From Heliopora coerulea (lineage: Eukaryota > Cnidaria > Anthozoa > Scleralcyonacea > Helioporidae): DNA of 64,000 bases. Location: positions 2,066,001 to 2,130,000 of the forward strand of contig JASJOG010000025.1 in NCBI GenBank assembly GCA_030142905.1, in the 5' to 3' direction. Both the position numbers and the translations under genes were made by a program. Under the pieces are notes generated by a model that made no database searches, was not told the DNA's origin, and saw only the letters and a list, made by a program, of their open reading frames with translations. Shown here one piece after another: positions 1 through 30,935 of the stretch (positions within the stretch are counted from its first letter, which is position 1; each line of letters opens with the position of its first letter).

Positions 1-657
1 CAATTGTTTCATACGCGAAGCACACTTGCTAATTAACCGGTTTATGATATCAAAGAAACGTGAACGGCAGTCACAACCAGGAGAATTACTGGCAAATTTT
101 CTTACGTAGGAAGAGCTGTGCAGTTTCAAAGTAACACAATTTCAAAAGAGGTTTCACGCACTCCTTCGGACTCGTACTATTTTGATAGTCTTTGAAAACC
201 TCACTCGTGCGTGGTATTTTCCAAACTCCACTCGAAGCCATGCTATTTCCGATACTAATCTTTCATACAAAATAAGGGTAACATCTTTACCAAACCAGTA
301 TTACGGATGATGACCCTCAGTCCAAAATTTGTTTCAAAAACTAAAAATTTGCTGACAAACTCAAAGTTGTCTACTAAACAGACACGTCGTTTGATTCGTG
401 ATCCAGGGGTTTTTCCCTGTTTAATATCTGAATTAACTTGAGGTTAATTTTAACATTTTACAAAGGACATGAAGATTGGTCAAAGAAGTGTTCACCTCGG
501 TGACCATTTTAGGTATAAAAGTCGCCAGTAGGCGACTGAAAATGCATTTTACTATGAGCCATCATGTTAAAATGCCTTCATATTTACTTTTGGGCGAGAC
601 ATAAAGTAAATGTGCATCATCACGATACATTTGATCTCTTCCTGTTCTCGACTTTAG
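1..657. other. ACSS3 intron, no feature recognised
   Basis: Upstream intron sequence of the ACSS3-like gene. I see no exon, ORF or repeat that I can name. Confidence 0.5.
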
Positions 658-739
658 CCTACCATTGCCACCTGGTGTTGCGTCGACGCTTTGGAAAAAT
701 GACGAAAGGTTCCTGCAGAGTTATTTTCAAAAGTACCCG
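658..739 (+). CDS. ACSS3: ACSS3-like exon a
   Basis: CTTTAG acceptor and GTAAGT donor. The first base completes a codon from an upstream exon; the remaining 27 codons start with LPLPPG and contain LWKND, the stretch before the conserved YYDTMD motif of ACSS3. It ends in phase 0. Confidence 0.88.
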
Positions 740-3700
740 GTAAGTCCCGATAAGAATCGGCAAAATTGAAAACATGCTTTGTTATGTGAACAAATTAGGC
801 CCAGTTCAAACGTCGAACTTTTCGTGTGCCGAATCAAATGCAAATCAGTTTGGACAAAGGATTTTGCTCACTAACATTAGATTCGGCACGTGAAAAGTTC
901 GACGTTTGAACTAGGCCTTAGCAGGCCATACATACGCCGTAAAAAACATTCGTCCCACTTCCTGTCAACCTTGCTTCCCCAATCCCTCCTTTTCTTTCTT
1001 TACTGCTTCCTTGCTTCCTTGCTTCCTTCCTTGCTTGCTTCCTTCCTCCCTTCTTTTCCTTCCTTCTTTCCTGTTCTTCCTTTCATTTCTTCCTTGCTTG
1101 GTTCCTTTCCTTCCTTTCTCTCCTTGCTTCTTTCTTTGCTTCCTTCCTTTCTTTCTTCCTGTCTCCCTTCTTCATTTTTACTCCGTTTCTTCCTTTTCTT
1201 GCTTTCTTATTCTTCGTTTCTTTTCCTTACTTTTTCAGCTTTTTCTTATCTCCTTTTTTTGCTCCTTCTTTTCCTCTTTTTCCTTTCTTCCTTTTTTTCC
1301 TTACTTCTGCTTTATCGCATTTAGAACAAGGCGACAGACTAGTGTTTCAGATCCGATAAAATGTGTTTTGGGAGTTTTTTTAAATTTGTTCTAAAACGAA
1401 CCCCATTATACGCTCATTGACGAAGAAAATTTGAGGTGTATAGGTGTAAATCAGGCGTATAGGTTCGACACAGTTATGGTTTGCCTTTCTGTTTTCTCCT
1501 TAATTGCTGATGCTTTATGGAAGTTTGTCTGGTAGATAATTGTGTTTCGTTTGATTTATCTTTGACCTGTCGAAGGCCACAGAATGATGGCCGAAAGTTC
1601 ATTTAAATAGTATATCTTCGGCGGGGAGCGCCGTTTTCTTAATGATCCCTAATTCCGGTTGATGCAAGATGAGGATTAACCAGGTTTTTAGCCTCTCGCG
1701 AGCCAACCAAATCGCAGGAAAACTGCACACAGTAATAGATACTGTACGAGTGACCAAATTCCATGGGATTTACACAGCGGCTTAGTTTATGGGTGTGTGT
1801 GGGTGTGTGGCACCTCTTAAAGTTTGCTAAAAAATAGAAAATTCGGGAAAAAATAAATAGTCATTTGGAAAAAATTTGGTAAGGTAAAGTAGGTCAAAAT
1901 CTCACTTGGTTACTAGTTTATATTTAATTTACCTATCGGAGATGAGGTACACCATACATGACCTGAATGCGCTTCAAATTAAATTCGGGCAATTTTTGAA
2001 AGTATACAATGTTTGGGTGGACATCAAAGTGGACATCCCCCAGTCAAAATGGGTTAACTATGCCCCTGAATTTACAACACATCTCAAATGGCCATGAACA
2101 GAATACTTCATGATAAACCTACCCTGCTAGTCAAGTAGAAAAGTTGACTTGAGCGGTATTCGAACTCCCATCTTTGGGTTTCCGGACCGCTGCTCTACCA
2201 ATTGAGCTATCGAGTGAATTGGGAATGGTATGCTCGTTTAGGACATTTTAAGTGCACCAAATATTGTCACAGCTTAACGCTTTATATTCGTTAGAATGTG
2301 CAGTGTTTCAATTCTATTTCAGAATTTAATTTCAGAGTCTCAGGGTAATCTAATACCCAGGGTAATCTCACTCAAGTCAACTTTTCTAGTTGACTTAAAC
2401 AGTGTAGGTTTATCATGAAATATTCTGTTTATGTTACCTAGAGGATGATTCTCAAATCAAATGGCTATGTTTACCAACTATTTTGAAGTTTCAGAGAATT
2501 TTCACATAGAAAATCGAAGGAAAAGTTTATATAAATCAGGACGACCCTGTATCCGATTTATAGCACACAAGTTAGGTGCCAATTTCTCTTGGGTTTTCTG
2601 CATGAACTATTAATGAGGACTAGGCCGGCCTTTCAGGTAGGAAATGAGGCCGACAATGAGGACTAGACCGGGTTTTCAGATAAGAGGAATTCGTTCTAGT
2701 CCGAGGCGAAGGCGAGGATTGGAACGAATTCCGAGTACTTGAAAACCCGGTCTAGTCCGAACTGGAGGCCTTTGAATGACTTCTCAGAATCAATTAGTGT
2801 ATTGGCACAATGAATTAGTGTACTAGTACTGAGCGAATCGATGATTAAACCGATTGTGTGAAATTATACTGTATTTTAAGTCCAATGACTTGAACTATTA
2901 TTTCTAGTCCAAGGACTGGAAAAAAACAGTTCAAGTCCTCTGCCCAGTACTTCCGTGGTGTTTCAAGTTCGCTCACGTTGTGCCATTCAGCGCGTCTGAT
3001 TGAATAATATACTCATGAATTATTAATGCGTTTGAGAATATTGCTTACAACACTAAGCTACAATCATGACATTGAAGAGCATCATGAAAAATAAGTGAAT
3101 GTTACGGGTGACAAGAAGGTTAACGTCCTTAACATTTGAACTTTCGAACCGTTTTTTTTTTTGAACAGTTTAAAACAGCATCCATTTCCTCCAAGGTGAT
3201 TTTCTGTTATAAAACATGTTATTAATATATGAATCTGTACTTAATTTTCCTCTATATTGAGAATTTAAAAAGTTAATCTTTATTTACCTGAGATCTTGCC
3301 TTGACGAATAAAATCGTGTGATCTTGACCAAGGTGAAATAGTTCAGGAATTCCTTGATAGGAGAAGGACTAGAAAACAATTTTATTTCCATAAGGAAATG
3401 ACTTACACGTGATGGTCGTTCCTTAAAATACATGTTCATCCTTTGTTGCATCCTTTTGTGTGTAATTGGTTTCAATCAAAGAATGCTGTCAAGTCGTTTT
3501 TTTTGACTAGTGTGTTGCTAAATTTTCGAAGTGTGATATTCAAAGTGGAGTTCACAGCTCCTTCTTGACGGTTAAAAATCTGTGGAAGGGTGGGAAGGTT
3601 TGAATCGTTTTCTATTCTGTAATACGTCTGCACAATTTTAGGGTCATTATGATACTATGGACGAAGGCATTATGGATTTTAGTGGATGTATATCGATTAT

Positions 3701-6700
3701 GACAAGAACCGACGACGTTATCAACGTGGCAGGCCACCGTCTCTCAACTAAAGGTATTGAAGAGGTATGCAACTCAGTTTAAATCGTTAGAAAGTACTTA
3801 TTTAGGTAATTTATAAATTTGTAAATTGATCTGTTTTGTAACTAGTTAGGTAAATGCTGTAATGAACAGAAATTTTTCATGATAATCTTACAATGCCCAA
3901 GTCAACTTTTGTTGATGGTTCTGAAATACAACCTGTAATGTCATAAGTTGTAAGTAGTTCTAAGTTAAATATCTCGAGAACGGAGCAAGATATTGAAGTG
4001 TGGTCCACGGCGTTTACATTCAAGTTCAAGTTCAACTTTTACTTATACATAATATATTTACATAATATAAGAAAAAAAAAGGCGTTAGATAGTAGACAAT
4101 GATTATAGGTAAATATTACAAGTATTGGAGAATGTAATGTGCAGCAGCAGGACGAGCACAGACTTTCGAGCTAGCCACCGCCACACAACTGTTGTATATA
4201 TGAATAGGTACACCAGGTGTCAGGCTATTAGTTTACCTTATAATTCGACAGCTTTAGTTGTTATTCAATACAACAGAGTGAAAGATAACTGCAACAGACA
4301 AATGAAAACAATAGAAGACATTGCTATCATTGACGACTTCAAAAATACAATTTCATCTTAAGTTTGTGATTTGAGTAAAAATATTTTATGTAATGTTTCA
4401 AACACGAGCAGGAGTGCTTTATCGCCTCGTGTTTTATATCCAATAAAGCACGTCCTACGAGTTTTTTGAACGGCTTAAAAAACAAACCTCTTAATACGCT
4501 GATTCGGTATAAAAGTTTGAAAATTAATGTTTTCTAAGCCAAGAAAATTTGAGGAGAAAAGTAAGCGGGTTTTTATCACATATAAAGACACGAAACGGTT
4601 ATGATTTTCCTTTGTATCTTCCTCATAAGCTTTTAATGAGTTTTTAAAGTGCTTTTCAAACTTAATGTAGTCTAAATTTATTAAATCAAGTGGATTATCT
4701 TTTTAACTGTTTGATAAAGAAAATGTAAACGTTTGTTTGCCATAATCAGTTCTCACTTTAGGTCTAGAAAAATTCTTATTTTTTGCATTCCTGGTATTGT
4801 ACGAAAGTTCATCAGTTTGAGAAACTACTCTACAATGGTATTGTAAGAATATACATCAATTTAAGAAACTACTTAACAAAGAAAAACTTAAAACCAATAC
4901 CAGCCGACAGTCCGAAAAGATATAAAACAAACTATAATCCGAATAAATGCGCCTTGAAAGCGGGAGATTATAGTTAAATCAAGGTGGTGGAGCGAGTCAG
5001 TAATATTTCGACTTTATTTCAAAGTCATTAGTCTAATGATGACTTTGAAATCAAGTTGAAATAGTACTGATTTGCTCCATCATCTTGAATGAACTTCAAT
5101 CGCCAGTTCTCAAAATGCTGCTACTGGAGTTATGTTGTATTTTATAAAGACAAACTTAATTTTCATTTCGTATATACCAGGAGGGATCCAGAATTTTGAG
5201 AAAGGGGAACTCAAATTTTTTTTTGACAAATATCATGCCACTATACTACCAATGGGTACAGAGGGATTTGTCCCGCACTTACTTTCGAACAACTTAAGGT
5301 CAGTTAGCAGGGTTTTGGAGGACCTAATTTTTCACATGGAAATCGATTTTTGAAGACCTTTAAGCCGAGTTAGCAGGGTTCTGGAGGACCTAATTTATTG
5401 TATGGAAATCTGGGATTTGTTCCCCACCTACTTTCAAACACCTTAAGGCCAGTTAGCAGGGTTTTGGAAGACCTAATCAAAAAAATGGAAAAAGAAAAAT
5501 GGAAGAACCATGAAGTAAAAACCTTATGGTGTAAAAAAATCAAACATCAGGGTTGTGAGAAGTGGAAGCCTCTTGTGAGTTCTGTGTTTTGTGGTGATCA
5601 TAAATGTGTTTTGCAGTTGTTATTCCACCTGACAGAATACCAAGTAATGGGATATATGGAGTTATTTTTTCCACCAATGAGAACACATCTCTTTTTAACA
5701 GTTCATCATTTTTCAATTCTTTGCTCAATTCCTCAGAAGATTCAATAGCATCTAGACCACCCAATGTATTTGAGAATTCGCTTATTAGAAGGTCAGTCAA
5801 GAACTCATTAGCTTTTTGCATTCTTTTGCGTTCATAATTTGTATAAAGCTTGTTGATTACCTTGTGACTGGCCTTTTTAATGTAAGCCACGGATTTGTCT
5901 AAGTCACCATCTTCTGCCAATTTCAAAAGGATATTCCTCTTTTTCTCTTCTGTGTGTATTCAGTGTTTGTTTGCGGTTCAACTTTTTCAGGTTTTTCTTC
6001 ATTGTCACTTAACATTCCTTTCAGTTCTTCTCCAGCTGTTGATATTTCTTCAATAGCCTCATCAATAGTTTTAGGTTTTGTATTTTTGCGTCGTGGCATT
6101 ATATATATTATACCATATATTTTATTTTTTTCCATTGACTACAGATTTTAGCGGTGTTATAATTTTATAGTCAAATGGATAGTGCAAATTGATTTCAAGT
6201 GTTGCATATTTAATATTCTTTAGTTTTTCTATAATTTGGGTTCTTTCTGTTTTGGTACTATTTCCTAGATACCTGCGGAAAATGACATTCACATCATCCT
6301 CATCTGGATTGTAAAAAGAAACAACTCTTGCAACATTGTCTCTATAGGGTTTAGAAATGCTGTTTAACTGTTGAGTGATGACTATTGTTGAGAGACCAAA
6401 GTGTCTAGCAGAAAATGCCAATTTGATCAACTCACTGGTTCTATTTTTGACATCCTGACTACTCGCACAGTCATCCAGGATTATTAAACTATTGGTTCCT
6501 TGGTAAACCACTTGGACAATTTGGAGCATTTTATTGACATTACCTTGATCACATTCCACGGCAATAAAATCAGGATCATTAATGTATTTCTAATCTTGGT
6601 ATGTTTTATTCCACGTGAAAGTTGGACAGATTAAAATGATATAATCAAAGTGCTTTTTATAATGTTTCTCAATCATATTTAGCAAATAATAGGTTTTCCC

Positions 6701-9700
6701 ACAGTTTGTCATACCACATATAATCATTTTGAAAGGTGACTCCATCTATATAATACATTATAACTTAATACTGGATGCTCCGCAAATCATTGGTCATGAA
6801 ATTGACAAGATCATCAGATACAACAAATATTTTACAATTAATGTTTCCAGTATGTGCTGTCTTTTTAATTTCCAATAGAATGCCATTCTGAGTGTTTACT
6901 ATCTTTTTGCCATGACCTGTTTTGTTAACCTCTTCGGTAGATCTTAGATCGATGACCAAAGCGAACTTGTCTTTGTAGAACTTTTCAGGTGTCATGAACT
7001 GGTCCTTTTCATCTTTTGATCGAAATAATCTTAGTGCTTCGTCATAGAACCGTGACTTTGTGATTCCTTGTGAGTATACCTGGTTTGGAACACCTTCAAT
7101 TGTTATTTTAACCTCTGTAATATTTGGATGAAGGAATTCTTCACTATCTGTCTTCGATGTCTTCGTAAAAAGCATAACGACGGCTTTCATGGACTTGCGA
7201 GGTATGTTAATGTTTTCATTAATGAGAGTGGACGCGGCGGCCCATGGAACATTCTTCATAAGAGTCACGTGTTCAAATGACAATGAACGACCAACCGCAT
7301 ACATTGATGCCACCTCATCTGCAATAGTTTGGTTTTCGATTGTCTCGTATTCTAATTCAAGGTTTTCAAGACTATAATTTCCAAGTGTTTGACCACTTTG
7401 AGCAACTAATATTTCATTTGATTTGGTTTCCCCTGCAAGCCTGATTTGTAAACGATTTTGGAGAAGCTTAGAGAGATTATTTAAAAAGCTGGTTTTAGTG
7501 TTGCTCACTTTGAAATCGAAGAGTAAATGCAGTGACCCGGGAACCGAACAACTGTCCTGCTTCAGTTTTGGGATATCTATATACAGTTCTTCTCCTGGTG
7601 ATGCTTTGTTAGGGTTCATAGTCACATGTCTTGTTCTTTCACCTTTTATTGCACCCATTTGGCTTCTTCTGAAACCCAGACTCAATTCTTCCTCTGTCCT
7701 ATTCATTGTTGATATATATTAATATACATTTTATTTCCTCTTCCTCGGTTCTTTGTATTGGTCGTATATGAACCATGCCACAGCTATAACAAGGATGTAT
7801 AGCTTGTTCGCAAGCCACGCCAATCCTTTAGCACCCCATGACAATGCTTGAGCGATGATATTCAATATTGGTGCTAATAAAGCTCGTAGTTTCTTTCCCA
7901 GGTTATAGACAGCTTTTGCAAATTTTCCAGTAGCCTGTGCACCTTTTATTAATGCTTTCCTGACGCCCACGATGATTGTTGTTATAATACCAGCGACAGA
8001 GATTGCCAAAGCGCTTAGACCGACTAAGTTCTCTTTGCCCACTCTTTGAATCGTTCTAGTCTGCTGATGTCTGGTATTTTATCTACTAATTCTTTAAACT
8101 GTCTTATGGCTTCTTTGCTTCTCTTAGCCGTGCTATATTTTCTGTCAACTTTTACGATTAGTTTTGGTTCCAATAAAATTCCGTCTTTACCATTTTGTTT
8201 GAAAAATAGAGCACCTTTGTCGTTAACAAATGGCCTATCAACGATCTCTTTTGATATTTTGTCTTCACCTAAAGATTTTTTATATAATTTTTGATTTTTG
8301 TATTTATTATTTGAGTCCTTTTTATTTGATTCACCGCTATTTCTCTATTAAGTTCACTTAGATTTTTTAGTCTAGCCTCTATCTCTTCTTGCTGTTTGAA
8401 TGCTAGATCAAAATTTTCCTGTTCTACACCTTCATAGTTATTATTGACTCTTACGAATTCTACTCCAGAGGTTTTGAATTGGACACCACTCTTTTTGTTA
8501 GTGATGGTTACTGTTTTACCATCGTCATTTTCTGTTAATGATGTTTCCATTTGATTAAATTTTCTCATTCTGATCAAATCCATGTATCTCCTCCTATTTT
8601 GTATATCAGCAAGTTCAGTTTTGTTAGAGTAATTATAGTTTGAAAATTCACTTAAACTGATGGACTTACGCTTGTTAAAGAAATCATCTTTTTGGTCAAG
8701 TTCGTCCAAACTCATATCGTAATCTGTGTAATTTTCACCCAAATCTTGCATTTCAAAATCATCGAATCTTCCTTCGGCCATTTGTATATATCACTCTATA
8801 TGTTGTATATCACTCTCAGGAATCCAACTATTATGTTTACTATCATAACCTAACCATTTAACAAGAACCATTTTTTTACCTTTTACTTTTTTCTTTTTAA
8901 TATTTTTTCAACTTTATAGACATCGTCCTTTTTATCAACACTTGACAATTCCTCTTCGTAGAATTTCCCAATAATTGGTTCACCCTCTAGATCCTCGATT
9001 TCATAAACAGTTGGGTCACCACGTATAACCTTGACCACTTTGAACAGTTCTTCAGTGAAATTGGCTTCATAACCTTTAGTAAAAGTGCTTTTATATTTTG
9101 GTATTCGGACAGTGTCTCCTACCTTAAATTTAGGTAATGGTGACTCAGCATAGAGATGGCCATATAGAGTGGACCAAACCTCGTCTTCATTCTTTTTGTT
9201 AACATCCTTTGGTTTCATTAATATGGTGTTGTACTTATATTATTGTAATTGTACACCAATTGGTCCAACACATCAATCCATTTATAAGTTCCTTTACTGT
9301 AAAAGTATTTCCACATAGCAGTTTTAAGTGCTCTGTTAAATCTTTCTACAACAGCTGCCTTTTTATCAGAGTTTGTGGAGAAATACTTAATATCATGTTT
9401 TTCTTACAACGATTTTACACCAACATTGTAAAACTCCTTTCCATCATCAAATTGAGCTATTTTAGGATAATCACCGAATCTCTCTTTAAATTGGCTCAAT
9501 AGTTCTGTGATTGCTTTTGTCATATTATTAGTATCTTTTCTATAAACAGGAATGGCGAATGCATACCTGCTAAGAATTTCAATAGATGTTAATATCCAGT
9601 AATAACCTTTGTTTTTGTTTTTATATGAACCCATATCAACGAGATCCATCTGTATCTGCTCACCAAGATAGTTAACTTTAGTTTGTCTGAATTTGTTTTC

Positions 9701-12700
9701 TGACAATTGGTTTATATCTGGTGTATGTGTCTTGTGATCTTAACCAGTCTTTCAGCTGTTTTCTACTGACATTTAAACCATCTTCTAATGCTTTTTGATA
9801 TAATCTTTCTGGAGATTGGTAACCAGTTTTAAGGTTGTGGTAAATATCTCTCAGCCCTTGTTCTATCTCTATATCTTTATCCATATACATTACACTAGAT
9901 TATGTATGTCTAATAGTATTTTTCCGATGTTTATTATTCTCCCATCTTGGTCCTTAACATTGAAATTGATCTTATTTCTAACACCCCTATCAATTGGGGC
10001 TCTGAATTCAATGTCGAAAAAATGCTGAACACTACCTTCCAATGACGGTGTAGTTGTTATTGGTAATAAAGCTATAACTTCACTTGTCTTGCCATTTGTA
10101 TTTATATTATCTATCATTTTAGTCAAACTACAAGTGACTTTTATGTATTGTAACCCATTATTTATATTAACTGAGTTACCACTTTTTGTATTTGTATTGG
10201 CGTTTATTACTTGGTCTTTGTTGAATCCCAATATAGGCCCTATAGTTTTCATATTTATTGCATTGTCACTAGTAATAAAGTACGTTCCATCATATTCATT
10301 AGACACCAAAGTAATGCTACCATAACTCTCAATCTCCTTCTTGATCATATTAAATGTCCAATGAGCCTTCTGTATCGTCTTTTTATTGCCGTTATATGTT
10401 AATTCATTGTTCTCATCAGTGATATTATTATAATCCCAGAATAAAGTAGCCTTCTTGACTAACAGAAACGGGTTAACATTATCTATTAAAAATGACTCAT
10501 CCAAGAGCAATTCTTTTGAAGAACCGTCTATCAAGACACTCGGTCTCTCCATATATAATATATCATATATTATATATGGTAACTAAAGAGTTAAGAAAAC
10601 AGGCAGAAAAGATGTTTAAAAATGAATATCCTAATGCAAAACTGGATAAATTCGAATTTGGATATAACTTAGATAATGATGGTAAATTGAAATCAATTGA
10701 TATCTATTACAAAGTCACACAAAAGTACTCAGATTGGATATCAATAACAGATCCAAGATTTAAAAATAATTCAGAAGAAGATCTTTATGGCAGCAAAGCT
10801 GGAACAGCTCAGCTGTTAAAAAAAACAGTAATGGATAACAGCTTAGCTGATACAAGTACACCAGGATTTCCAAAAATATGGCAACCAAATGGTACAATAC
10901 AAAAAATTCTTGAGTCAAATATACAATATGTTGAAGGATATTGTCTCACTGATAAATATCCAGATCATTACATATTGAATTACGATATTGAGAATTTCAG
11001 AATATATATCAACAACCAAGTGACAACCATTGCCGGGCCCAAGTGACAAGTTTTTATTCGGTTAATCAGTGAATACTTGGCAAAATGTTGAAAACTGATT
11101 TCAGTGAAACGTTTCCCGGTATTTTTTGAATTTGAATTTCTTCTACTCACGGTTTCATTTCTTTGCTGTTTGTTCCGATTCCCTTTGAAAATATTCATCA
11201 ATATTCCTGGTGGTCAACATGTTTAATGCTAGTTTATGTAACGAAGCAAAAAGTCAAATGACGACTAATCAAAAAGGGGGGCGCGCGTCCGGTGAGCTCC
11301 TGGCTAAATCCTCCCATGTATACACTTCAATAGCTAAAACGTTTTGTTGCTTTGCTTAGCGTCATCAGCGAATAAATGTTTGTTTAACCCTTTTTGTTCC
11401 CAGGCGTCTCCCCTTGACGAGTAAAATTGTCAGGCGTTAGCCAGAGTCAAATTGATAAGTTTGATAAGGACAGAAAAGAGTTAATTAGATGACTCAACTA
11501 CGGTGTTTTGTATCACGAAATCGTCGTATTTTTCTTAACTTGTTAAATATTACTGAAAAATCATTTATGTCTAAAATAGTTTGGTCTCTGCAGTAGACAT
11601 TACCAGCGCCTGTCACTAAACATTGTTTCTTTCATCCAGGCGCTACTGAAGGATGAAGATGTCATCGATGCTGCGGTAGTTGGTGTCGATGATGAACTCA
11701 GGGGCCATGTTCCTTTTGGATTTATAGTTTTGAAGAAAGGTACACGTGCATGGACTGATTGAAACATATTTTATAGATGTACCGTATAAATCGATGAACA
11801 GCTACGCTATTGTGCTGATCGGACCTTGGAAAGGCATCAAATTGCTGTCTTGGCTTACGCCAGAGTAACGACTTTAATTCACGGAATTCTATCATCTAGA
11901 GCATAAATACAGAAAGGTGGGGGTTGATCCGTCTGTATTTGAAACCGCCAGCCTCGTTGTACACTTTGTCCGACCCTAAACCAGGTTTGTTGGACTGAAC
12001 TTTTTTCAGCTTCGGAGCCTTTATTATTTGGAAACAAATTTTCGACTTTCTGAATCATACATTCAAAGTCCGAACCAGGACCAGCTGTGAAAAGTACATC
12101 TCTGGGGCCTTTGGCTGGTAATCAAATCCCCGCAATCCTGCGAATCTAATGCAGTGCCCTGCCAGCTGAGCCACAAAACCCGTTGTCGAGAGCTTGTTCA
12201 CGGAACTTCGTATTTATAGAAGTGGTAATGCAGCTAAAGTGATTGGTATATTTAAGGAATATTAGGTTCTACACTCGATCACATGAAATGCAATCTATGT
12301 AGGTGAAAGTAAATTTACGAGTTCTATATATGTGCAGAACTCGTGGTCATTTTCTTGACAACGGCCTTCGTAGCTCAGTTGCCAGAGCATTGCACTGGAT
12401 TTGCTGCGTCACGGGTTTGATTCCCAGCCAGAGGCCCAAGAGTTGCATTTGTCGCAAGCAGCCCCGGTTGAGTCTTCAAATGTGTGGTTCTGACACTCGA
12501 AAGTTTAGTTCCGTTTAATACAGACTCCATATCATTGAACTCGGTTTTGTTGTCAAGAATTATCCAGGTCTCAGGTGGTATTGTCAGCCTCAACTTCAGC
12601 TTCGCCCGAGAAAACAGTCTTCGATCTTGATAATTCTTGACATCAAGAAGTCTCATCCAATGTTTGTTTATTAAGGTGATTTCAGTTTATGTTTTAAGGG

Positions 12701-13853
12701 GATACTACTCCTTGAAATCGGGAACAGCGGTCTCACTACACAGTATTTGTTCTCATTCGGAGAATGTAAAAAAATAATCCCAGCAGCCAAAAGCTCAATC
12801 AATGCTCTATAAGAATAACTCTATTGGGAATACACTAATACAAAACTGAGGGAATTACTCGGATACCCAAACATTTCACGGATAACTCAAACCGTTATTT
12901 AGTCTAATCAAGGACTATACCTAACTTGATGATAACAATTCAGAAGTTTACTCACCACGTTACGATGTAATGTGGGATTTTGGAAAAATTATATTGGTAG
13001 TTGTCACGGCAATTGTTTGAAACGTGGAAGTCATTTTGTAATGGTAAAAATGCATTCAAACGCTAAGTTTGCCTGGTCAGCTAAAAAGCATCCATGTTTT
13101 TATGAATCAAAACCTTGCGAGATGACCAAAATAAATGAAAGAGGTTGGACAATCATAAGTAATGAGAACTATCTCCTTAACATTACGTGAATCTTTCACA
13201 CAGGAATTAAGAAATCCCATGATGACATTATTAATGATGCTATCCAGTCAGTTCGTGAACACTTGGGGCCAGTGGCGGCCTTCAAGTCAGCAGTCATCGT
13301 TCCAGCATTACCAAAGGTTAGTCATGTTTAACTCTTTAACATAAGGACAGGAGAAGTATCAGGGAAATGGTAAACGAGCTATTTCACGTGTGATGTTTTG
13401 TCTTGTGACTGTGACCCTGGTGTGTGCAATTAGCCCAGGACAGTCTATGCAGCATGATTTCTGCATATGATTCACTGTAGGACGTCCTTGACGTTCTCGT
13501 GGGTTTAATTCACATGTGAGGATGACGATAGCGGGGCCCAAAATCGTGCCCAGTTTACACAGTCATGACGGGAATACCAAGGACGACGTTTCCTTACAAA
13601 AGATTTTTTCTTTCAACACAAAGAGAATGGTCTAGGTTGAAAACACGGCGCGACTGATTGCATTTGTTCGTTTTCATGACGGCGTTCGGTCTTTCATTTG
13701 TTGGTTCATCCGTTTATTTCATTCATTAAGTCGTTTATTCATTTCATTCATTTACTCATTCATTCAGTCGCACATTGATTCATTTCATTCACTTATTCGC
13801 TCAGTCATTCATTTATTTATTTATTCAATCATTTCATTCATTCCACTTATGTA

Positions 13854-13929
<76 letters not shown>

Positions 13930-16726
13930 GTCTATCTGTCTGACTATCTTTCTATCTGTCTGTCTATCCGTCTATTTATTTATTTGTGTATTTTTTTGGT
14001 GTATTTATTTAAACTTATTTTTGTACGGTGACCTTTTAGTCGTCTAATTCACAGAGCGCCGTGTTTAATTTCTGCCTCACTGTCTCCTTTCCTCGAACAT
14101 AATAGACTTCTAAGCTATTTTGCGACAAATGCTCAATTGTGTTACTAAATTTAAATTGCTTTCAATCGATATCACCATGAAAAAAAGACCTGGATTTTTG
14201 CAAGCCATATTAACGTTTATTTTCGACAGACTAGATCCGGTAAAACCTTGCGTTCGCCTCTACAGAAGTTAATCAACGGAAAGCAATATAAGGTAATGTG
14301 ACGCCAGTATAATTATTGACCCGCATCAAAACCTAATGTTTTCACTCGGCATTATATCAACTAATGTAGAAAGCAAAATTATGCAATTCGAGTTTGTAAA
14401 ATTTATCTCACCGCATTCGCTGATACAATGCAGAGGAAACATAATGTTTTTCGATGAAGGTCAGTAATTATAATAGGTAATTACTGAGGCACCCAGCATT
14501 ATTGCATATAATACAAACAGCTGAGGCCGCAGGCTGAAGCTGCCTGTATTATATCCAATAATGCTGTGTGCCTCAGTAATTATCTATTAAATACTGTCTT
14601 GTTGATTTCTGATTTTTATGCAGCTATAGGATATATTAAACCAGCTGTCTATGGAACTCTTAAACCCCGGGGCAGATACAGTCGCGTAGCCAGAAATTTG
14701 AAAGTGGGGGAGCAGGAGAGATTTTAGATAAATGTACCGACAAGATGTTAGCAATGTACCGACAATTAAGAAAAATCACAGTTAATCAAACCGAGGGTAT
14801 GAGAAACTTGAAATTCGATAAAGGAATAAATGATTTCTAATGTGCTAGCTCTGGTTGGTATAATGGTATTAAATTTCGAAAATGATTCGCAAAACTGCAC
14901 ACATCACGTGAGCTATGATATATACCAACGTATCTTCTTTTTAGACCGTCGCCGCTACCACAACGACTTTGTCCAGAGGGTTGACTGAATCTATCATTTT
15001 CGTCGGTTGAAAAAAACAAAAAAACAAAAGAGAATTCATTACGAACATTTTGTATTTAACGTCTTTCCCGTACTTAACTTTCGCCGCAGCTTATTTAACA
15101 ATATTTTTAATTTGATAATTCAAACGCAAACGGAATCCGCGACGGACAGGGTTAATGTACCGACAAATGTACTGGATGTACCGACTGACCTTGTCAAGAC
15201 GAAAAGGGGGGCAATGCTCCCTGCCCCCCTGGCTACGCTAATGGGCGAATATCATTGTAATGGTCGGCCTTTGGTTGTATTCGGCGCAAATTATGCGTGC
15301 AGCCGTCCAATGATTGTTCAGTAAAAATTTTCGTCGACCATTCAGCCACATTTTAAGCTTCTGGTTGTGAGTTTTTTCGTAACTACCCACAAAAGACTTG
15401 TTTGAAAACCGCTTGTAAGTTTTTTAAGTAAAATTCAAAAACCCCATTCGCTATTTCTTTTTTTTTAAGTGCTTGACTTTTGGTCTCGCAGTTGAGTTTC
15501 CCGTTTCGTGGAATGAGTCGAAATAACTGTTTCCCACTCATAAAGAGGTTAGAAAAACAAGGTGTTAGTGAACAGGAACTCTTCAAGCTATTAGCTCTAC
15601 GAAATAAAACATTCTTGGTGAATAACGGTTTAAAAAGTGTCCATATCGAGATTTGAGAGAAGGCTAAGTGAAAAAATTTAGGAAAATAAATTTCAAGTTT
15701 GTTGTTTTCCTTTGAAAAAAACGTACCAAACAGTGTCAAGTGGTTTATGAGTAATTAGTTCGGTAATAGTCCCCAACCTGGACTTCAAAATGAGAAAAGT
15801 TGAACGTTTTGGAAATCAGAAAATACGTGGCAAACACGCAGCGTAAATAATCCTTTCCCAAACGAGCCTTCGTTCCTGTAGTATTTCAGTTGTAAATCCT
15901 TTGTCAGGATTTGAAAAAGGACCTCTAATGACGCCATCTTTTTTTCGGACACTTTTTAAGCAGAACCCGCAGTCCAGGTTTATTATACAGGTGAGTGGGA
16001 GACAAATAGTATGGTCGGCTGAGTAAGTACAGAAAACAAATAATTTTTACGACATCCGGTGTCTCCAGAGCTTACTTATCCTAGACTGGGGAGTCGGACT
16101 CGGGGGGAGGGCAGAGTATTAGTATGCTCCCCTACTTTTTAACTGGCTGGTAATATACTACAAACTTGTGATTGCCAAATGAGATCACTCCTGAATTAGA
16201 ACTTCTAGAAAATCACAAATTCGACCTCGATCAACATTTAGGTTATCGTTTTTGACACTTGTATAACGAGGGCAACTGGCCATTGGAGTTTTTTTTACCG
16301 TTGGAGCGCACAGTCAGACACACCCAATACAGAGATTGGGACCTCACTACCCCTCGATTTTAATTGTCGTTCTGACGCCTTTGGTCCTGTTGATGAATGG
16401 GCCAGGTCACGTGCCCCAGTGATAAACCATTCTGGTTACGAAACTCACCCACAGACAGGCTGCTATTTCGGAAGATTTAAAACGTTTTCCATGCTACCCA
16501 TTTGTCAAGATAGTCTCATGTTGTAGAGTGCACAGATAATTTGTGCGGCTGCGGTCGACTACTCGGTTCTTTTGACCCGGGATAACTTTCGATTAAGGAG
16601 GCACTTTCGAGAATTTATGTGATATAAACAAAAGTCTGATTCGTTTTTTAGCTCCCAGGAACTGTTGAGAATCCAGAGATTTTTGATGTAATCAAGCAAG
16701 TCCTCAAAGACGATGGACATCTTTAA
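658..16726 (+). CDS. ACSS3: ACSS3-like acyl-CoA synthetase, 3' part of the gene (six exons)
   Basis: Six exons join in phase: 658-739, 3642-3764, 11640-11739, 13204-13316, 14230-14292 and 16652-16726, each with AG before and GT after, the last ending in TAA. The encoded C-terminal part carries landmarks of the acetyl/propionyl-CoA synthetase (AMP-forming) family: LPLPPG and LWKND, then YDTMDEG, DDVINVAGHR, GHVPFGF, REHLGPVAAFK and TRSGK with the lysine that completes adenylation in this family. The order and spacing match animal ACSS3, a mitochondrial enzyme that activates short-chain acids such as propionate. The N-terminal half lies left of the window. The intron 3765-11639 carries a Polinton-like virus remnant. 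Family identity is very likely; ACSS3 rather than ACSS1/2 rests on recalled ACSS3 sequence. Confidence 0.9.
798..917. mobile_element. 120-bp palindromic MITE, Harbinger-like target site
   Basis: Arms of about 40 bp are near-perfect inverted repeats, starting GGCCCAGTTCAAACG on the left and ending CGTTTGAACTAGGCC on the right. TTA is present on both sides (795-797 and 918-920). A TWA 3-bp duplication is typical of PIF/Harbinger. It is non-coding and lies in an ACSS3 intron. Confidence 0.72.
958..1310 (+). repeat. Polypyrimidine tract (CTTCCTT-type)
   Basis: About 350 bp made almost only of C and T on the + strand, with imperfect CTTCCTTGCTTCC and TTTCTTCC units. It gives long Phe/Leu/Ser ORFs that are not genes. 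Confidence 0.85.
1311..2084. other. Intron sequence without recognisable feature
   Basis: No coding signal. There is a short GT-rich patch near 1793-1810; otherwise nothing I can assign. Confidence 0.4.
2097..2457 (+). mobile_element. Foldback retroposon with two inverted tRNA-related segments, copy 1
   Basis: 361 bp between 12-bp direct repeats CAAATGGCCATG (2085-2096) and CAAATGGCTATG (2458-2469). The left and right parts are inverted copies of each other, about AACAGAATACTTCATGATAAACC versus GGTTTATCATGAAATATTCTG. The left part carries a tRNA-like module on the minus strand, with A-box-like TAGCTCAATTGG and B-box-like GTTCGAATACC. The right end adds a unique tail ending GGATGATTCT. The same tail and arrangement occur at 26449-26870. 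Long, variable duplications suggest target-primed retroposition rather than a classical DNA transposon. Confidence 0.75.
2660..2762. repeat. Imperfect hairpin
   Basis: AGGACTAGACCGGGTTTTCA on the left is inverted on the right (TGAAAACCCGGTCTAGTCC), with a second inverted part around GAATTCGTTCTAGTCC. Probably a small MITE; ends not defined. Confidence 0.5.
2763..3641. other. Intron sequence, nothing assigned
   Basis: AT-rich. The short ORF on the minus strand (3284-3475) has no recognisable motif. The last bases hold the polypyrimidine tract and TTTTAG acceptor of ACSS3 exon b. Confidence 0.4.
3642..3764 (+). CDS. ACSS3: ACSS3-like exon b (hinge and DDVINVAGHR motif)
   Basis: 41 codons between TTTTAG and GTATGC, phase 0 at both ends. 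It encodes YDTMDEG followed by RTDDVINVAGHRLS, the A8 hinge region of AMP-forming acyl-CoA synthetases, where the C-terminal domain swings between adenylation and thioesterification. Confidence 0.92.
3765..5263. other. Intron sequence, nothing assigned
   Basis: AT-rich intron before the viral remnant. A short inverted motif of ATTTCGACTTTATTTCAAAGTCAT type lies near 5005-5065. No coding signal. Confidence 0.4.
5264..5478 (+). repeat. Short diverged direct repeats next to the viral remnant
   Basis: GTTAGCAGGGTTTTGGAGGACC-like units occur three times (from about 5303, 5369 and 5452). A longer unit, GGATTTGTYCC...ACTTAAGG, occurs twice (5264-5300 and 5412-5449). They sit immediately left of the Polinton-like block. 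Confidence 0.7.
5540..6099 (-). pseudogene. Small Polinton-associated protein with C-terminal hydrophobic segment, frameshifted
   Basis: Start chosen at 6099 (MPRRK), 2 bp after a TATATATA stretch. The N-terminal half is charged and acidic, with GEELKGMLSD. The reading frame is lost near 5925-5945, and the continuing frame gives a helical region (LAEDGDLDKS, NYERKRMQKANEF) and a hydrophobic stretch, ITPYIPLLGILSGG, before a polar tail. Both halves look like one gene of about 180 residues. I recognise it only as a companion of this element type; its function is unknown. A virion or membrane role is a guess from the hydrophobic segment. Confidence 0.6.
6100..6120 (-). promoter_or_regulatory. 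TATATA element before the small membrane-protein gene
   Basis: TATATATA lies within a few bases upstream of the start at 6099, with a second TATAT-type stretch further up. Confidence 0.5.
6122..6745 (-). pseudogene. A32-like packaging ATPase (FtsK/HerA type) with one in-frame stop
   Basis: The start at 6745 follows TATATAG directly. Walker A GMTNCGKT lies at about residues 11-18, followed after a stop by Walker B SLIILDDCA and a sensor-like region with VITQQLNS. This order and length (about 207 codons) fit the genome-packaging ATPases of Polintons, virophages and NCLDVs, which drive DNA into the capsid. A TAG at 6590-6592 splits the frame after about 51 codons, while the sequence on both sides stays in one frame. 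The neighbours are the capsid-like gene upstream and the small membrane protein downstream. Confidence 0.85.
6746..6753 (-). promoter_or_regulatory. TATATA element before the packaging ATPase gene
   Basis: TATATAG is directly joined to the ATG at 6745. Confidence 0.5.
6765..7706 (-). CDS. Capsid-like protein, candidate major capsid protein of the Polinton-like element
   Basis: Intact ORF of 313 codons, ATG at 7706, just after a TATATATA stretch at 7712-7719. It is rich in predicted beta strands. The segment IPRKSMKAVVMLF, then FLHPNITEVKITIEGVPN, resembles the 'PKRV..G...NPFNF....L..DG...P' block I know from double jelly-roll capsid proteins of Mavericks, and the C-terminus (NCKIFVVSDDLVNF) is of a recurrent invertebrate element-encoded family. 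Its place between ATPase and penton-like genes supports a structural role. It is shorter than most adintovirus hexons, so a different fold or a minor capsid role remains possible. It is the only long enzyme-free ORF here without breaks besides the penton-like gene. Confidence 0.65.
   Translation of the reverse strand: MNRTEEELSLGFRRSQMGAIKGERTRHVTMNPNKASPGEELYIDIPKLKQDSCSVPGSLHLLFDFKVSNTKTSFLNNLSKLLQNRLQIRLAGETKSNEILVAQSGQTLGNYSLENLELEYETIENQTIADEVASMYAVGRSLSFEHVTLMKNVPWAAASTLINENINIPRKSMKAVVMLFTKTSKTDSEEFLHPNITEVKITIEGVPNQVYSQGITKSRFYDEALRLFRSKDEKDQFMTPEKFYKDKFALVIDLRSTEEVNKTGHGKKIVNTQNGILLEIKKTAHTGNINCKIFVVSDDLVNFMTNDLRSIQY
7711..7728 (-). promoter_or_regulatory. TATATA element before the capsid-like gene
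   Basis: TTAATATATATC lies 5 bp upstream of the start at 7706, in a gap of only 24 bp after the stop of the preceding gene. Confidence 0.5.
7731..8781 (-). pseudogene. Polinton-associated protein with two hydrophobic helices, broken by two frameshifts
   Basis: Start ATG at 8781 after a TATATAT stretch. The first 165 or so codons are polar and acidic (FDDFEMQDLGENYTDYDMS) with coiled-coil-like charged repeats (QQEEIEARLKNLSELNREI). Near 8275-8290, at a T run, the frame shifts and continues with VDRPFVNDKGALFF and DISRLERFKEWAK. Near 8035-8045 it shifts again into a segment with two hydrophobic helices, around LSALAISVAGIITTIIVG and KLYILVIAVAWFIYD, ending in a basic tail at 7731. One ancestral gene of about 350 residues is the simplest reading. 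Function unknown; a virion membrane or minor capsid role is inferred from context only. Confidence 0.6.
8785..8810 (-). promoter_or_regulatory. Repeated TATATA elements before the membrane-segment gene
   Basis: GTGATATAYA occurs twice in close tandem upstream of the start at 8781, overlapping the end of the integrase reading frame. Confidence 0.5.
8791..9890 (-). pseudogene. Retroviral-type (rve) integrase with C-terminal chromodomain, broken
   Basis: The start at 9890 overlaps the stop of the penton-like gene (TAATG). The order is: N-terminal helical region with YQSPERLYQKALEDG; DDE core with QMDLVDMG (first Asp), QFDDGKEFYN (second Asp) and, beyond a stop, VERFNRALK (Glu); an SH3-like part with KFKVGDTVRIPK; then a chromodomain half with VKWLGYDSKHNSWIPE ending at 8791. 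This is the Polinton integrase layout. There are four breaks: a frameshift near 9695-9705, TAA at 9404-9406, a frameshift near 9220-9240, and TAA at 8883-8885 just before the chromodomain core. The catalytic D, D and E are all still readable, but in separate pieces. Confidence 0.9.
9890..10552 (-). CDS. Penton-like minor capsid protein candidate
   Basis: Intact 220-codon ORF, ATG at 10552 at the left end of the divergent palindromic promoter. It contains IGPILGFNKDQVI, then INNGLQYIKVTCSL, and ends with INFNVKDQDGRIINIGKI. The pattern of 'LGF', then 'V.CN/SL', then a final 'DQDG...G..I.I' block is what I know from penton or minor-capsid proteins of arthropod Mavericks. Size also fits a single jelly-roll penton. 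Evidence is motif pattern plus context, with no structure comparison, so the call is moderate. Its stop codon overlaps the integrase start by one base, which suggests co-expression. Confidence 0.6.
   Translation of the reverse strand: MERPSVLIDGSSKELLLDESFLIDNVNPFLLVKKATLFWDYNNITDENNELTYNGNKKTIQKAHWTFNMIKKEIESYGSITLVSNEYDGTYFITSDNAINMKTIGPILGFNKDQVINANTNTKSGNSVNINNGLQYIKVTCSLTKMIDNINTNGKTSEVIALLPITTTPSLEGSVQHFFDIEFRAPIDRGVRNKINFNVKDQDGRIINIGKILLDIHNLV
10549..10579. promoter_or_regulatory. 31-bp near-palindromic bidirectional TATATA promoter
   Basis: CCATATATAATATA, one central mismatch region, then its inverse TATATTATATATGG. The minus-strand start (10552) and the plus-strand start (10576) form the two ends, so the palindrome includes both ATG codons. 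Palindrome and positions are seen directly; promoter function is inferred from similar TATA stretches at the other genes. Confidence 0.7.
10576..11046 (+). CDS. Divergent Polinton-like element gene, unknown function, probably cut at its 3' end
   Basis: ATG at 10576 is the outward start at the right end of the palindromic TATATA region; an in-frame upstream extension to 10492 overlaps the penton-like gene and is unlikely. The protein (about 156 codons) is polar, with EFGYNLDNDGKLKSIDIYY and KIWQPNGTIQKILES. I do not recognise a family. AT-rich codon use matches the neighbouring viral genes up to about 11020; the last few codons (TTIAGPK) and the sequence after them look like host intron, so the gene was probably truncated when the element was lost on this side. 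Confidence 0.55.
   Translation: MVTKELRKQAEKMFKNEYPNAKLDKFEFGYNLDNDGKLKSIDIYYKVTQKYSDWISITDPRFKNNSEEDLYGSKAGTAQLLKKTVMDNSLADTSTPGFPKIWQPNGTIQKILESNIQYVEGYCLTDKYPDHYILNYDIENFRIYINNQVTTIAGPK
11047..11639. other. Intron sequence with a GGCGTTAGCCAGAGT repeat fragment
   Basis: Host intron after the viral remnant. Around 11396-11480 lies a repeat fragment (CTCCCCTTGACGAGTAAAAT then GGCGTTAGCCAGAGT) that recurs near 20790 and 37810-37860. Nothing else assigned. Confidence 0.5.
11640..11739 (+). CDS. ACSS3: ACSS3-like exon c
   Basis: 33 codons plus one base, preceded by TCCAG and followed by GTACAC. It encodes AAVVGVDDELRGHVPFGF, matching the family's 'CAVVG.ED.LKGHVP' segment of the small C-terminal domain. 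Confidence 0.9.
11740..13203. other. Intron with tRNA-like SINE fragments
   Basis: Contains an inverted tRNA-like fragment around 12130-12195 (GCCAGCTGAGCCAC) and the better copy at 12361-12432. An inverted pair (CTTGATGTCAAGAATTATC-like and its partner) lies between 12550 and 12650. No coding signal. Confidence 0.45.
12361..12432 (+). repeat. tRNA-like SINE head
   Basis: A-box-like GTAGCTCAGTTGCCAGAGC and B-box-like GGGTTTGATTCCC are spaced as in a tRNA, but there is no good acceptor stem. Treated as a tRNA-derived repeat. Confidence 0.55.
13204..13316 (+). CDS. ACSS3: ACSS3-like exon d
   Basis: Two bases complete the Gly codon left open by the previous exon, then 37 codons follow, including VREHLGPVAAFKSAVIV. 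CACAG acceptor and GTTAGT donor. Confidence 0.9.
13317..14229. other. Intron with simple-repeat tract
   Basis: ATTCATT-rich sequence (13690-13850) leads into the tetranucleotide repeat listed separately. No gene. Confidence 0.5.
13857..13976 (+). repeat. Compound tetranucleotide microsatellite (TCTG)n(TCTA)n
   Basis: Perfect TCTG units followed by many TCTA units, then a mixed tail. The derived Leu/Ser/Ile ORF is not a gene. Confidence 0.95.
14230..14292 (+). CDS. ACSS3: ACSS3-like exon e (catalytic lysine)
   Basis: 21 codons, phase 0, CGACAG acceptor and GTAATG donor. It encodes TRSGK followed by LINGKQYK. The TRSGK lysine is the A10 catalytic residue needed to form the acyl-adenylate and the usual target of acetylation control in the family. 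The residues after it (TLR) differ from the common IPR. Confidence 0.88.
14474..14586. repeat. Small palindromic element
   Basis: TAGGTAATTACTGAGGCAC at the left is inverted at the right, with further pairing of CAGCATTATTG and TATAATACA. A MITE-like hairpin in an ACSS3 intron. Confidence 0.7.
14679..15243. mobile_element. hAT-type MITE, CAGTSGCGTAGCCAG ends
   Basis: 565 bp with ends CAGTCGCGTAGCCAG and CTGGCTACGCTAATG, flanked by GGCAGATA (14671-14678) and GGCGAATA (15244-15251), 6 of 8 identical. CAG termini and an 8-bp duplication point to hAT. It contains repeated TGTACCGACAA motifs and no transposase. Confidence 0.65.
16652..16726 (+). CDS. ACSS3: ACSS3-like terminal exon with stop
   Basis: TTTTTAG acceptor, 24 codons then TAA. 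Contains ENPEIFDVIKQVLK, which matches the 'EDPSIFGHVEEMLK' tail of ACSS3. No clear AATAAA was noted just downstream. Confidence 0.83.
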   Translation, partial: LPGTVENPEIFDVIKQVLKDDGHL

Positions 16727-17626
16727 CCTTTAACTGTACAGTAAGAGTTAGAGTGTAATGTTTACTTATTAACCCGTGTATGAGATCTGTAGTGGAAAGT
16801 ATTTACCTGAGATTTTTACACAGACCGAGCGAAGAAGGACCGAGGTTTGTACCCAAAGAATCCGGATGCAAATACTCTCCCGTACAGACAGAACAAACGA
16901 GCTTAATAAGGAATTTATTATATGGCTTTTATTTCCTTTCATCATCGCCTTTAACTCACTTTGTTTAGCACGGTAACTGTTTAGACTTACTTTCTTTTTA
17001 CCTATTACTTAATATGCTTTTTTTCGTTTGTTTGTTTCTTTTCACCCAGTTTTGTGCTTGAAATCATATTTGAAAGGATTCATCCAGATCGTAAGCATCT
17101 CGTTGGTATTAATCTGTTGTGAAACTTATCTGAATCTGCTTTGCTTGTCGTCAAATCACATGAAGATTTTCCGCCAAAATTTGCCAGTTTGAATGGAAAA
17201 CTTATTGTTCGGTTCAGTCGGCTGGACAGCCAATCAGCGTTCGTCGTTTTGCATGCAGACCAGATAAGGATTCTAGCCATATAATTATCTCAGGTATTGT
17301 TTAGCTCGGGAAATGGATTATACTTTGCAAAACAAGCAACCCGAGGAGGTACTGGACGTAAATACTGATTTGAAAAGTTAGTAAGTAATGAATGATAGTG
17401 TTAGTCCGTACTTCTTAAAAGATTTGTTTCAAACTTAACCCTCCCCTACATACACTTGAACAACAACAACCAATTAAAACAATAGACCAAATGAAAGAAC
17501 GAAGCAGAATATTGATTTGAAAAGTTTGTATGTATCTAATGCCGATGAGGCCGTCGAAAACTCAGTCACTAACAGACTTTCCCGACTCTACACCAACTAG
17601 CCTGCACTATCTACCTTGTCGAAGAC
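16727..17626. other. Sequence downstream of ACSS3, nothing assigned
   Basis: Probable 3' flank of ACSS3. No exon or repeat recognised. Confidence 0.4.
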
Positions 17627-18602
17627 CAGTGGCGCCGTGGTTTTCATGTCGTGTCGACATGAATTTGCTCGAATAAAGTTTGAAACTATTTTCAATTCGC
17701 AGCAAGCTAAAACTGTCACTTTAAGGTAAAAGTTTGATCTGCCGCCTCTAATAATCGATCTGTTTATATGTGACAGATTAACCAAAGAATGAAAATGAAC
17801 AAGCGTGAGAATTTTCACTGAAGTCTTCTGAACATTACAGATAAAATCCTGTACACTGATTCGACTCCTTACGATTTAGAACTACACTGTGAGCTGCTTC
17901 CGTATTGTAACAACTAGCTGGTACCAACATAACTTTTTGAACGGCAAAGGCGGCGCGAGCGGGGGAGGGGGGACTAAGGGAGTATTTACGTCCCCCAATA
18001 TTTTGGCAACAAGTGCCCTTTTTATCATACGCTTAATCTTAGAGATTTAAAAGTACGGGTAAAATGTCTGGGCGCAAGGTATAGTATGGTGTACCCTTTT
18101 AGAAGACAGCCTGAAATTGTACACAGCTAGCGTCAAGGAAGAACGTAAATGAGTCAACGTTGTATTAACCGGATATGGCTTATAGGTACTAAAAGCATAG
18201 TGATGACAAATTCATGGGAAACAGACAACTGGTTATTTTTCTGTTTATAAACTCTCAAGGAATCGTTGCGCTTTCGTTATGATCTCACAAGTAATCTATT
18301 TGTCAGTTTTCTTGTCCTTCTTGATATGTTTACGCAATTCGCATAATGTTCCCTCCAAAAAATGTACTCCCTCAACTTGTTAATGCTCGCGACGCCGGTG
18401 TTGAACAGTATAGTATCAGGCAATTCAGGCTTCGTTTTGAGAATAATATTGGATATTAATCACTTTTGTTCACCTAAAATCTTCAAGTTCCCGTCGTCAA
18501 ATTCTCAACAAGAATACGTCTTCTGTATCGTCGGTATCGACTCGGAAAGGGCCCACCAAGGGATCTATCCCACGGGACCCCACATGCCTAGTTGCGCCGC
18601 TG
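17627..18602. mobile_element. hAT-type MITE copy A (CAGTGGCGC ends) with extra internal sequence
   Basis: Starts CAGTGGCGCC and ends GTTGCGCCGCTG, flanked by TCGAAGAC and GCCAAGAC (6 of 8 identical). Two long blocks match copy B at 49332-49911; between them copy A has about 450 bp (roughly 17930-18390) that copy B lacks. No ORF for a transposase. Confidence 0.65.
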
Positions 18603-30905: not shown

Positions 30906-30935
30906 ATTTGACTCTGGATTTGACTTTCACCTGGA

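What the first reader, a model, noticed from the sequence alone, without database searches (positions are those of the whole stretch)
5540..11046. Endogenous Polinton-like virus with an unusual small capsid-type protein, inside an ACSS3 intron
Integrase, packaging ATPase, penton-like and capsid-like genes lie together with two hydrophobic-segment proteins and one orphan gene. The capsid-like protein is only 313 residues, shorter than most known adintovirus or Maverick hexons, so this may be a poorly described lineage. Gene set and compact spacing are seen; lineage novelty is inference.
Basis: partly seen in the sequence, partly recalled or inferred. Interest (0 to 1): 0.82.

Follow-up and report, generated by a model that had tools for sequence, protein, structure and literature searches.

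The report
Decayed Polinton-like virus, shortened capsid gene
A broken fragment of a capsid-forming DNA virus sits in an intron of an enzyme gene; its oddly small capsid gene is only a deletion, but its many relatives in the same genome seem to copy their DNA with a fused polymerase-helicase of a kind described from a ciliate's mobile element.

The parts
5245..5539 (.). Left end of the fragment, with imperfect repeats of roughly 75-80 nt shared with relatives
   Evidence: Direct repeat 5263-5342/5412-5491; homology to L014 begins at 5245
5540..6138 (-). Last gene of the module, frame-shifted; 5540-5926 is the 128-residue ORF of the finding
   Evidence: One 201-codon ORF in L014
6122..6745 (-). 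Packaging ATPase, cut by a stop
   Evidence: Pox_A32 E 5e-7 on 6122-6559; uncut in L014, E 2e-16
6765..7706 (-). [quoted passage not shown]
   Evidence: fold of a full-length relative
7731..8781 (-). One gene with a hydrophobic end, broken into three ORFs (170, 106 and 103 residues)
   Evidence: Single ORFs of 423, 461 and 389 codons in L016, L010, L015
8883..9899 (-). Retrovirus-type integrase, broken into four ORF pieces
   Evidence: rve E 1e-7
9890..10552 (-). Single jelly roll penton protein, open over its full length
   Evidence: Homologues of 198-223 residues among the best
10576..11046 (+). First ~150 codons of a longer divergent gene, then cut off
   Evidence: 44% identity over 149 residues to L015, where the gene goes on
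3642..3764 (+). Flanking host exon, acyl-CoA synthetase (not viral)
   Evidence: Best E 8.6e-10
11637..11742 (+). Flanking host exon, AMP-binding C-terminal domain (not viral)
   Evidence: E 1.7e-8

Best explanation
A dead, truncated copy (about 5.8 kb) of an integrating double-jelly-roll DNA virus of the Tlr1-type Polinton-like group, antisense in an intron of an acyl-CoA synthetase gene. Shown: broken integrase and ATPase, a capsid gene with an internal deletion, one side cut off inside a divergent gene, and capsid genes open over full length with the same gene order elsewhere in the genome. Inferred: a longer parent (one relative is flanked by inverted repeats and spans some 17-20 kb) inserted by its retrovirus-type integrase, was copied by a fused palm-helicase protein and could package DNA with its ATPase into capsids of the ~412-residue protein and pentons; the replication half was later lost here by deletion or rearrangement. 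The fragment most likely does nothing now.
Against: The palm was recognised by recalled motifs, not by a profile or fold; none of the 20 database relatives is listed with a polymerase domain. No replicase lies on the expected side of the window copy; the one within 20 kb is on the other side and the same strand. L016 has ORFs that look polymerase-like beside an integrase end and were named by no Pfam model. The penton model is modest (pLDDT 60.5). Exact ends and any target-site duplication were not found.
Confidence: 0.82

Rival explanations
1. A true Polinton/Maverick or adintovirus fragment, whose parent used a stand-alone protein-primed DNA polymerase B.
For: rve integrase, Pox_A32-type ATPase, penton and DJR capsid are shared features; the genome holds DNA_pol_B_2 copies (89 matches), one of them 16.9 kb from a capsid place, divergent; the Hydra Polinton capsid also hits PBCV-1 VP54 (PMC4028283); polymerase-like ORFs in L016.
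Against: Of 51 polymerase places entered, one lies within 20 kb of one of 127 capsid places, against 27 for the replicase. The polymerase list is partial: 91 of 919 candidates were scored.
Confidence: 0.12
2. A genuine lineage with a miniature capsid protein of about 313 residues.
For: The ORF is open and the missing block keeps the frame. Two other relatives also lack in-frame stretches in this region: C157 (columns 41-142 of A4, against 99-196 in the window) and P0072 (45 residues).
Against: 111 of 127 own-genome places break at this block and 14 are partial; the one other that runs through has different deletion ends. In-frame deletions are the only ones this search shows as running through, so such cases are picked out by the method. 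The block carries parts of the first jelly roll in the model, and neighbouring genes are broken.
Confidence: 0.03
3. Viral genes kept by the host, for example the penton or the short capsid as an antiviral interferer.
For: The penton ORF is open and the capsid ORF too; dN/dS of the window against four copies is 0.20-0.32.
Against: That ratio mostly reflects evolution before insertion; other genes of the block are broken and the block is antisense to the host gene. No expression data were at hand.
Confidence: 0.03

Closest known systems
Tlr1 element of Tetrahymena thermophila (PMC4028283, PMC4642659, PMC11071308)
   Same: Retrovirus-type integrase, packaging ATPase, DJR capsid, penton, and a large SF1 helicase instead of a DNA polymerase gene; palm and GIY-YIG parts are described for the Tlr1 helicase, helicase and GIY-YIG domains are seen in relatives here.
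   Different: Host probably an animal; extra genes in a relative (RING, Bro-N and VRR_NUC, a long divergent gene). No Tlr1 sequence was at hand for a direct comparison.
Polintoviruses and PLVs of stony corals (Stephens et al. 2024, doi 10.1093/ve/veae039; not held, known here only from citations in PMC12220804, PMC12945077 and PMC12721341)
   Same: Endogenous Polinton-like elements in cnidarians; one replicase relative here is named from Montipora foliosa, from recall a stony coral.
   Different: Cannot tell; the paper could not be read.
OmPLV of the dinoflagellate Oxyrrhis marina (PMC12721341, passages)
   Same: Bro-N with VRR-NUC, and an SF1 helicase fused to polymerase parts (here).
   Different: In OmPLV the fusion has the other order, a tyrosine recombinase is present and the rve integrase was not detected.
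Vertebrate Mavericks (PMC8097293) and adintoviruses (PMC11071296), passages
   Same: Integrase, ATPase, penton and capsid genes; two divergent modules; most vertebrate copies degraded.
   Different: They encode protein-primed polymerase B; here the regular neighbour of the capsid gene is the helicase protein.

Membership tests
[quoted passage not shown]
Tlr1-type Polinton-like virus | Single jelly roll penton | tested here: met
Tlr1-type Polinton-like virus | Retrovirus-type integrase and packaging ATPase | tested here: met
   rve 1e-7, Pox_A32 5e-7
Tlr1-type Polinton-like virus | SF1 helicase fused to a palm domain in place of a DNA polymerase gene | tested here: inconclusive
   Absent from the truncated window fragment. 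In relatives: SF1 helicase and co-location met, GIY-YIG in 8 of 20 database relatives, palm only by recalled motif
Tlr1-type Polinton-like virus | Sequence relatedness to Tlr1 proteins | not tested
   No Tlr1 sequence was at hand
Polinton/Maverick | Stand-alone protein-primed DNA polymerase B | tested here: inconclusive
   No match among the window ORFs scanned; 1 of 127 capsid places has a listed DNA_pol_B_2 place within 20 kb, but only 91 of 919 polymerase candidates were scored
Polinton/Maverick | Adenovirus-type (Ulp1-like) protease | tested here: inconclusive
   No protease among the ORFs scanned of window and relatives; not every ORF was scanned
[quoted passage not shown]
   None of the 12 inverted pairs in window 1-20000 flanks the fragment; a 1676-bp inverted repeat flanks the C146 relative; target duplication not looked for
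Adintovirus | Hexon recognisable by BLASTP with adintovirus hexons, and PolB with OTU-like domain | not tested
   Definition seen in a passage of PMC11071296; no reference sequence at hand
Virophage | Virophage-type capsid | tested here: inconclusive

The most novel reading that the evidence does not exclude
Animals (probably cnidarians) carry a large, until recently mobile clade of Tlr1-type viruses: capsid, penton, ATPase and retrovirus-type integrase kept, the usual polymerase B replaced by a palm-helicase-GIY-YIG replicase, with more than a hundred capsid places in one genome and capsid genes under purifying selection. It would be the animal counterpart of an element type described from a ciliate.
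Probability: 0.58. Interest if true: 0.55.

Novelty: new member of a known kind. Interest (0 to 1): 0.36.

Why it matters
The window item is ordinary decay. The relatives matter more: Bellas et al. (PMC10120064) found cnidarian capsid genes to be the only metazoan ones outside the Maverick-Polinton cluster. A helicase-type replicase paired with this capsid would fit that, and makes it testable whether animal and protist Polinton-like viruses exchanged replication modules.

Tried and rejected
Viral contigs scanned with the capsid alignment: 7 pattern matches, no relative. Capsid against phage records: no match. Pfam gave no capsid or penton family for the two proteins or for four full-length capsid relatives; PHROGs gave nothing useful. 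PDB by sequence gave only hits I take for chance, or none. VIA-align rows for the penton mix pentons with unrelated beta proteins at similar Z, so I lean on BFVD. A VLTF3-like factor was suspected in the C146 relative and not confirmed. The genome search for the terminal repeat did not complete and was dropped. Host identity through COX1 (PF00115) was asked six times and never answered; the cnidarian host is an inference from named relatives (Paramuricea clavata, Montipora foliosa; their taxonomy is recalled), while the closest proteins are unnamed.

Literature seen: PMC4028283 parts 1-2 of 4; PMC11071308 section 10 and passages; PMC10120064 section 9 and passages; passages only of PMC8097293, PMC11071296, PMC4642659, PMC12220804, PMC12721341, PMC12945077. 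Starrett 2021 and Stephens 2024 are not held; nothing of them was seen. In the listings of searches I noticed no paper on Tlr1-type elements in animals, but the unread coral paper may cover them.

Full report
What was claimed.

What is in the window. Every named ORF is there. On the minus strand, in reading direction, the module is: penton (9890-10552), integrase (8883-9899), a gene with a hydrophobic end (7731-8781), capsid (6765-7706), ATPase (6122-6745) and a last gene (5540-6138). On the plus strand a divergent gene starts at 10576. Profile matches: rve integrase core, E 1e-7, and Pox_A32-type ATPase, E 5e-7. The flanks are coding: 3642-3764 matches acyl-CoA synthetases (E 8.6e-10 to 5gxd) and 11637-11742 the AMP-binding C-terminal domain (E 1.7e-8), both on the plus strand, so the fragment lies antisense in an intron. 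That the gene is ACSS3 in particular was not tested.

The small capsid is a deletion. The 313-residue ORF has 447 homologues at E<=1 among 1308 candidates; 120 are listed, many of them 410-417 residues long and many from Paramuricea clavata. In the alignment with ten of them the window lacks one block of 98 columns that nine full or partial relatives carry at least in part, plus one single residue; against the C146 copy 99 columns are missing in all. In the own genome (430 Mb) the capsid search gave 197 matches, with 127 of 1471 candidates scored. Of the 127 places I entered, 111 break at this block, 14 are partial, and two run through: the window and C157. The C157 copy has its own in-frame deletion, columns 41-142 of alignment A4 against 99-196 in the window: the two overlap but share no end. 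P0072 from Paramuricea lacks 45 residues in the same region. In-frame losses there have thus happened more than once; the search shows only in-frame ones as running through. In the model of the full-length relative the missing block holds the end of one strand, a helical stretch and two further strands of the first half, so a normal capsid fold is unlikely for the window product.

The rest is broken. Integrase is spread over four ORF pieces; the ATPase is cut by a stop. The 170- and 103-residue ORFs match the two ends of single ORFs of 423, 461 and 389 codons in L016, L010 and L015. The 128-residue ORF is the end of a 201-codon ORF in L014. The 184-residue ORF matches the first ~150 codons of a longer gene (44% identity to L015 over 149 residues), and the homology stops near 11018. 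On the left, homology to the C146 relative ends near 5245, after repeats that relatives share. None of the 12 inverted pairs found in window 1-20000 flanks the fragment.

The family in its own genome. The same gene order, in whole or with gaps, is found in L009, L010, L012, L014 with L015, and L016. Among the loci I fetched, the longest close match is contig C146, 91.8% identical over 2.1 kb; it is flanked by a 1676-bp inverted repeat, 99% identical, and its genes lie between the arms over roughly 17-20 kb. Parts of that repeat look like retrotransposon ORFs from recall, so its outer limit is uncertain. Beyond the module known from the window this relative has the long divergent gene, Bro-N (E 6e-23) and VRR_NUC (E 9e-6) genes, a RING protein (E 5.5e-11), and a broken gene whose pieces recall a polymerase palm, SF1-helicase motifs and a GIY-YIG start; Pfam named none of these last pieces.

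The replicase. A palm-region piece of that gene has 143 matches in the genome, with 137 of 263 candidates scored. Comparing 127 capsid places with 114 replicase places gave 27 pairs within 20 kb, 26 of them with the replicase on the capsid's 5' side and divergent; random placement on the same contigs gives 6.3 pairs (maximum 14 in 500) and 2.1 such pairs (maximum 7). The only odd pair is the window's own capsid with a replicase fragment on the other side (L035). One hundred capsid places have no listed replicase within 20 kb, which decay and the partial lists may explain. Of 51 polymerase-B places one was near a capsid place, from a list in which 91 of 919 candidates were scored. Longer natural ORFs of the replicase carry SF1 helicase domains (Viral_helicase1 4e-10 in L031; AAA_19 4e-12 in L033). 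Of 20 database relatives 17 have helicase domains and 8 also GIY-YIG; one is named, from Montipora foliosa. This is the architecture described for the Tlr1 helicase: palm, S1 helicase, C-terminal GIY-YIG in some (PMC11071308). Not shown: the palm was not tested by a profile or a fold, and no Tlr1 sequence was at hand.

Selection and state. Pairwise dN/dS among five natural capsid copies, the window included, is 0.20-0.41 over ten pairs, so capsid genes were kept by selection for most of that time. The window copy shows a similar ratio, presumably because most of its changes predate its death.

What is known already. Polinton capsid and penton (PMC4028283), Tlr1 with integrase and helicase (PMC4642659), mostly degraded Mavericks (PMC8097293), cnidarian capsid genes outside the Maverick-Polinton cluster (PMC10120064), and endogenous PLVs in stony corals (cited; the paper itself not held). 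The window is therefore a new member of a known kind, and dead. The open point worth work is the Tlr1-type replicase of its relatives in what is probably a cnidarian.

Noticed in passing
L035 1803-5654 (C168:2059302-2063153), left of the window: Broken replicase fragment of the same family (86% over the search piece) on the other side of the window element; perhaps its lost half, moved, or a second insertion.
   Followed up: partly
window 4921-5028 and 5039-5146: Inverted repeat of 108 nt with 10 nt between the arms, 73% complementary, near the left end of the viral fragment; perhaps a small hairpin element.
   Followed up: no
L016 1732-5060 (minus): ORFs of 659, 244 and 212 codons beside an integrase end; they look polymerase-like from recall, but only a weak Endonuclease_7 match was found (E 2.5e-4, under the cut-off).
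   Followed up: partly
L015 4655-5404 and the genome: The end of the divergent gene next to the penton has 1131 first-look candidates in the genome, many listed ones with open frames of 340-490 codons at 42-46% identity: a very common viral protein, perhaps lectin-like (weak Laminin_G_3 match in L010, E 0.0076).
   Followed up: partly
G000, DNA_pol_B_2 places: Polymerase-B copies, several with open frames of about 1320-1350 codons, mostly lie apart from the listed capsid places: perhaps a second Polinton-type population in the same genome.
   Followed up: no
window 30001-34000: Strong GC skew (up to +0.52 in 2-kb steps), unlike the rest of the window.
   Followed up: no
window 13775-14047: A simple-repeat-like stretch gives a chance ORF on the plus strand.
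   Followed up: no
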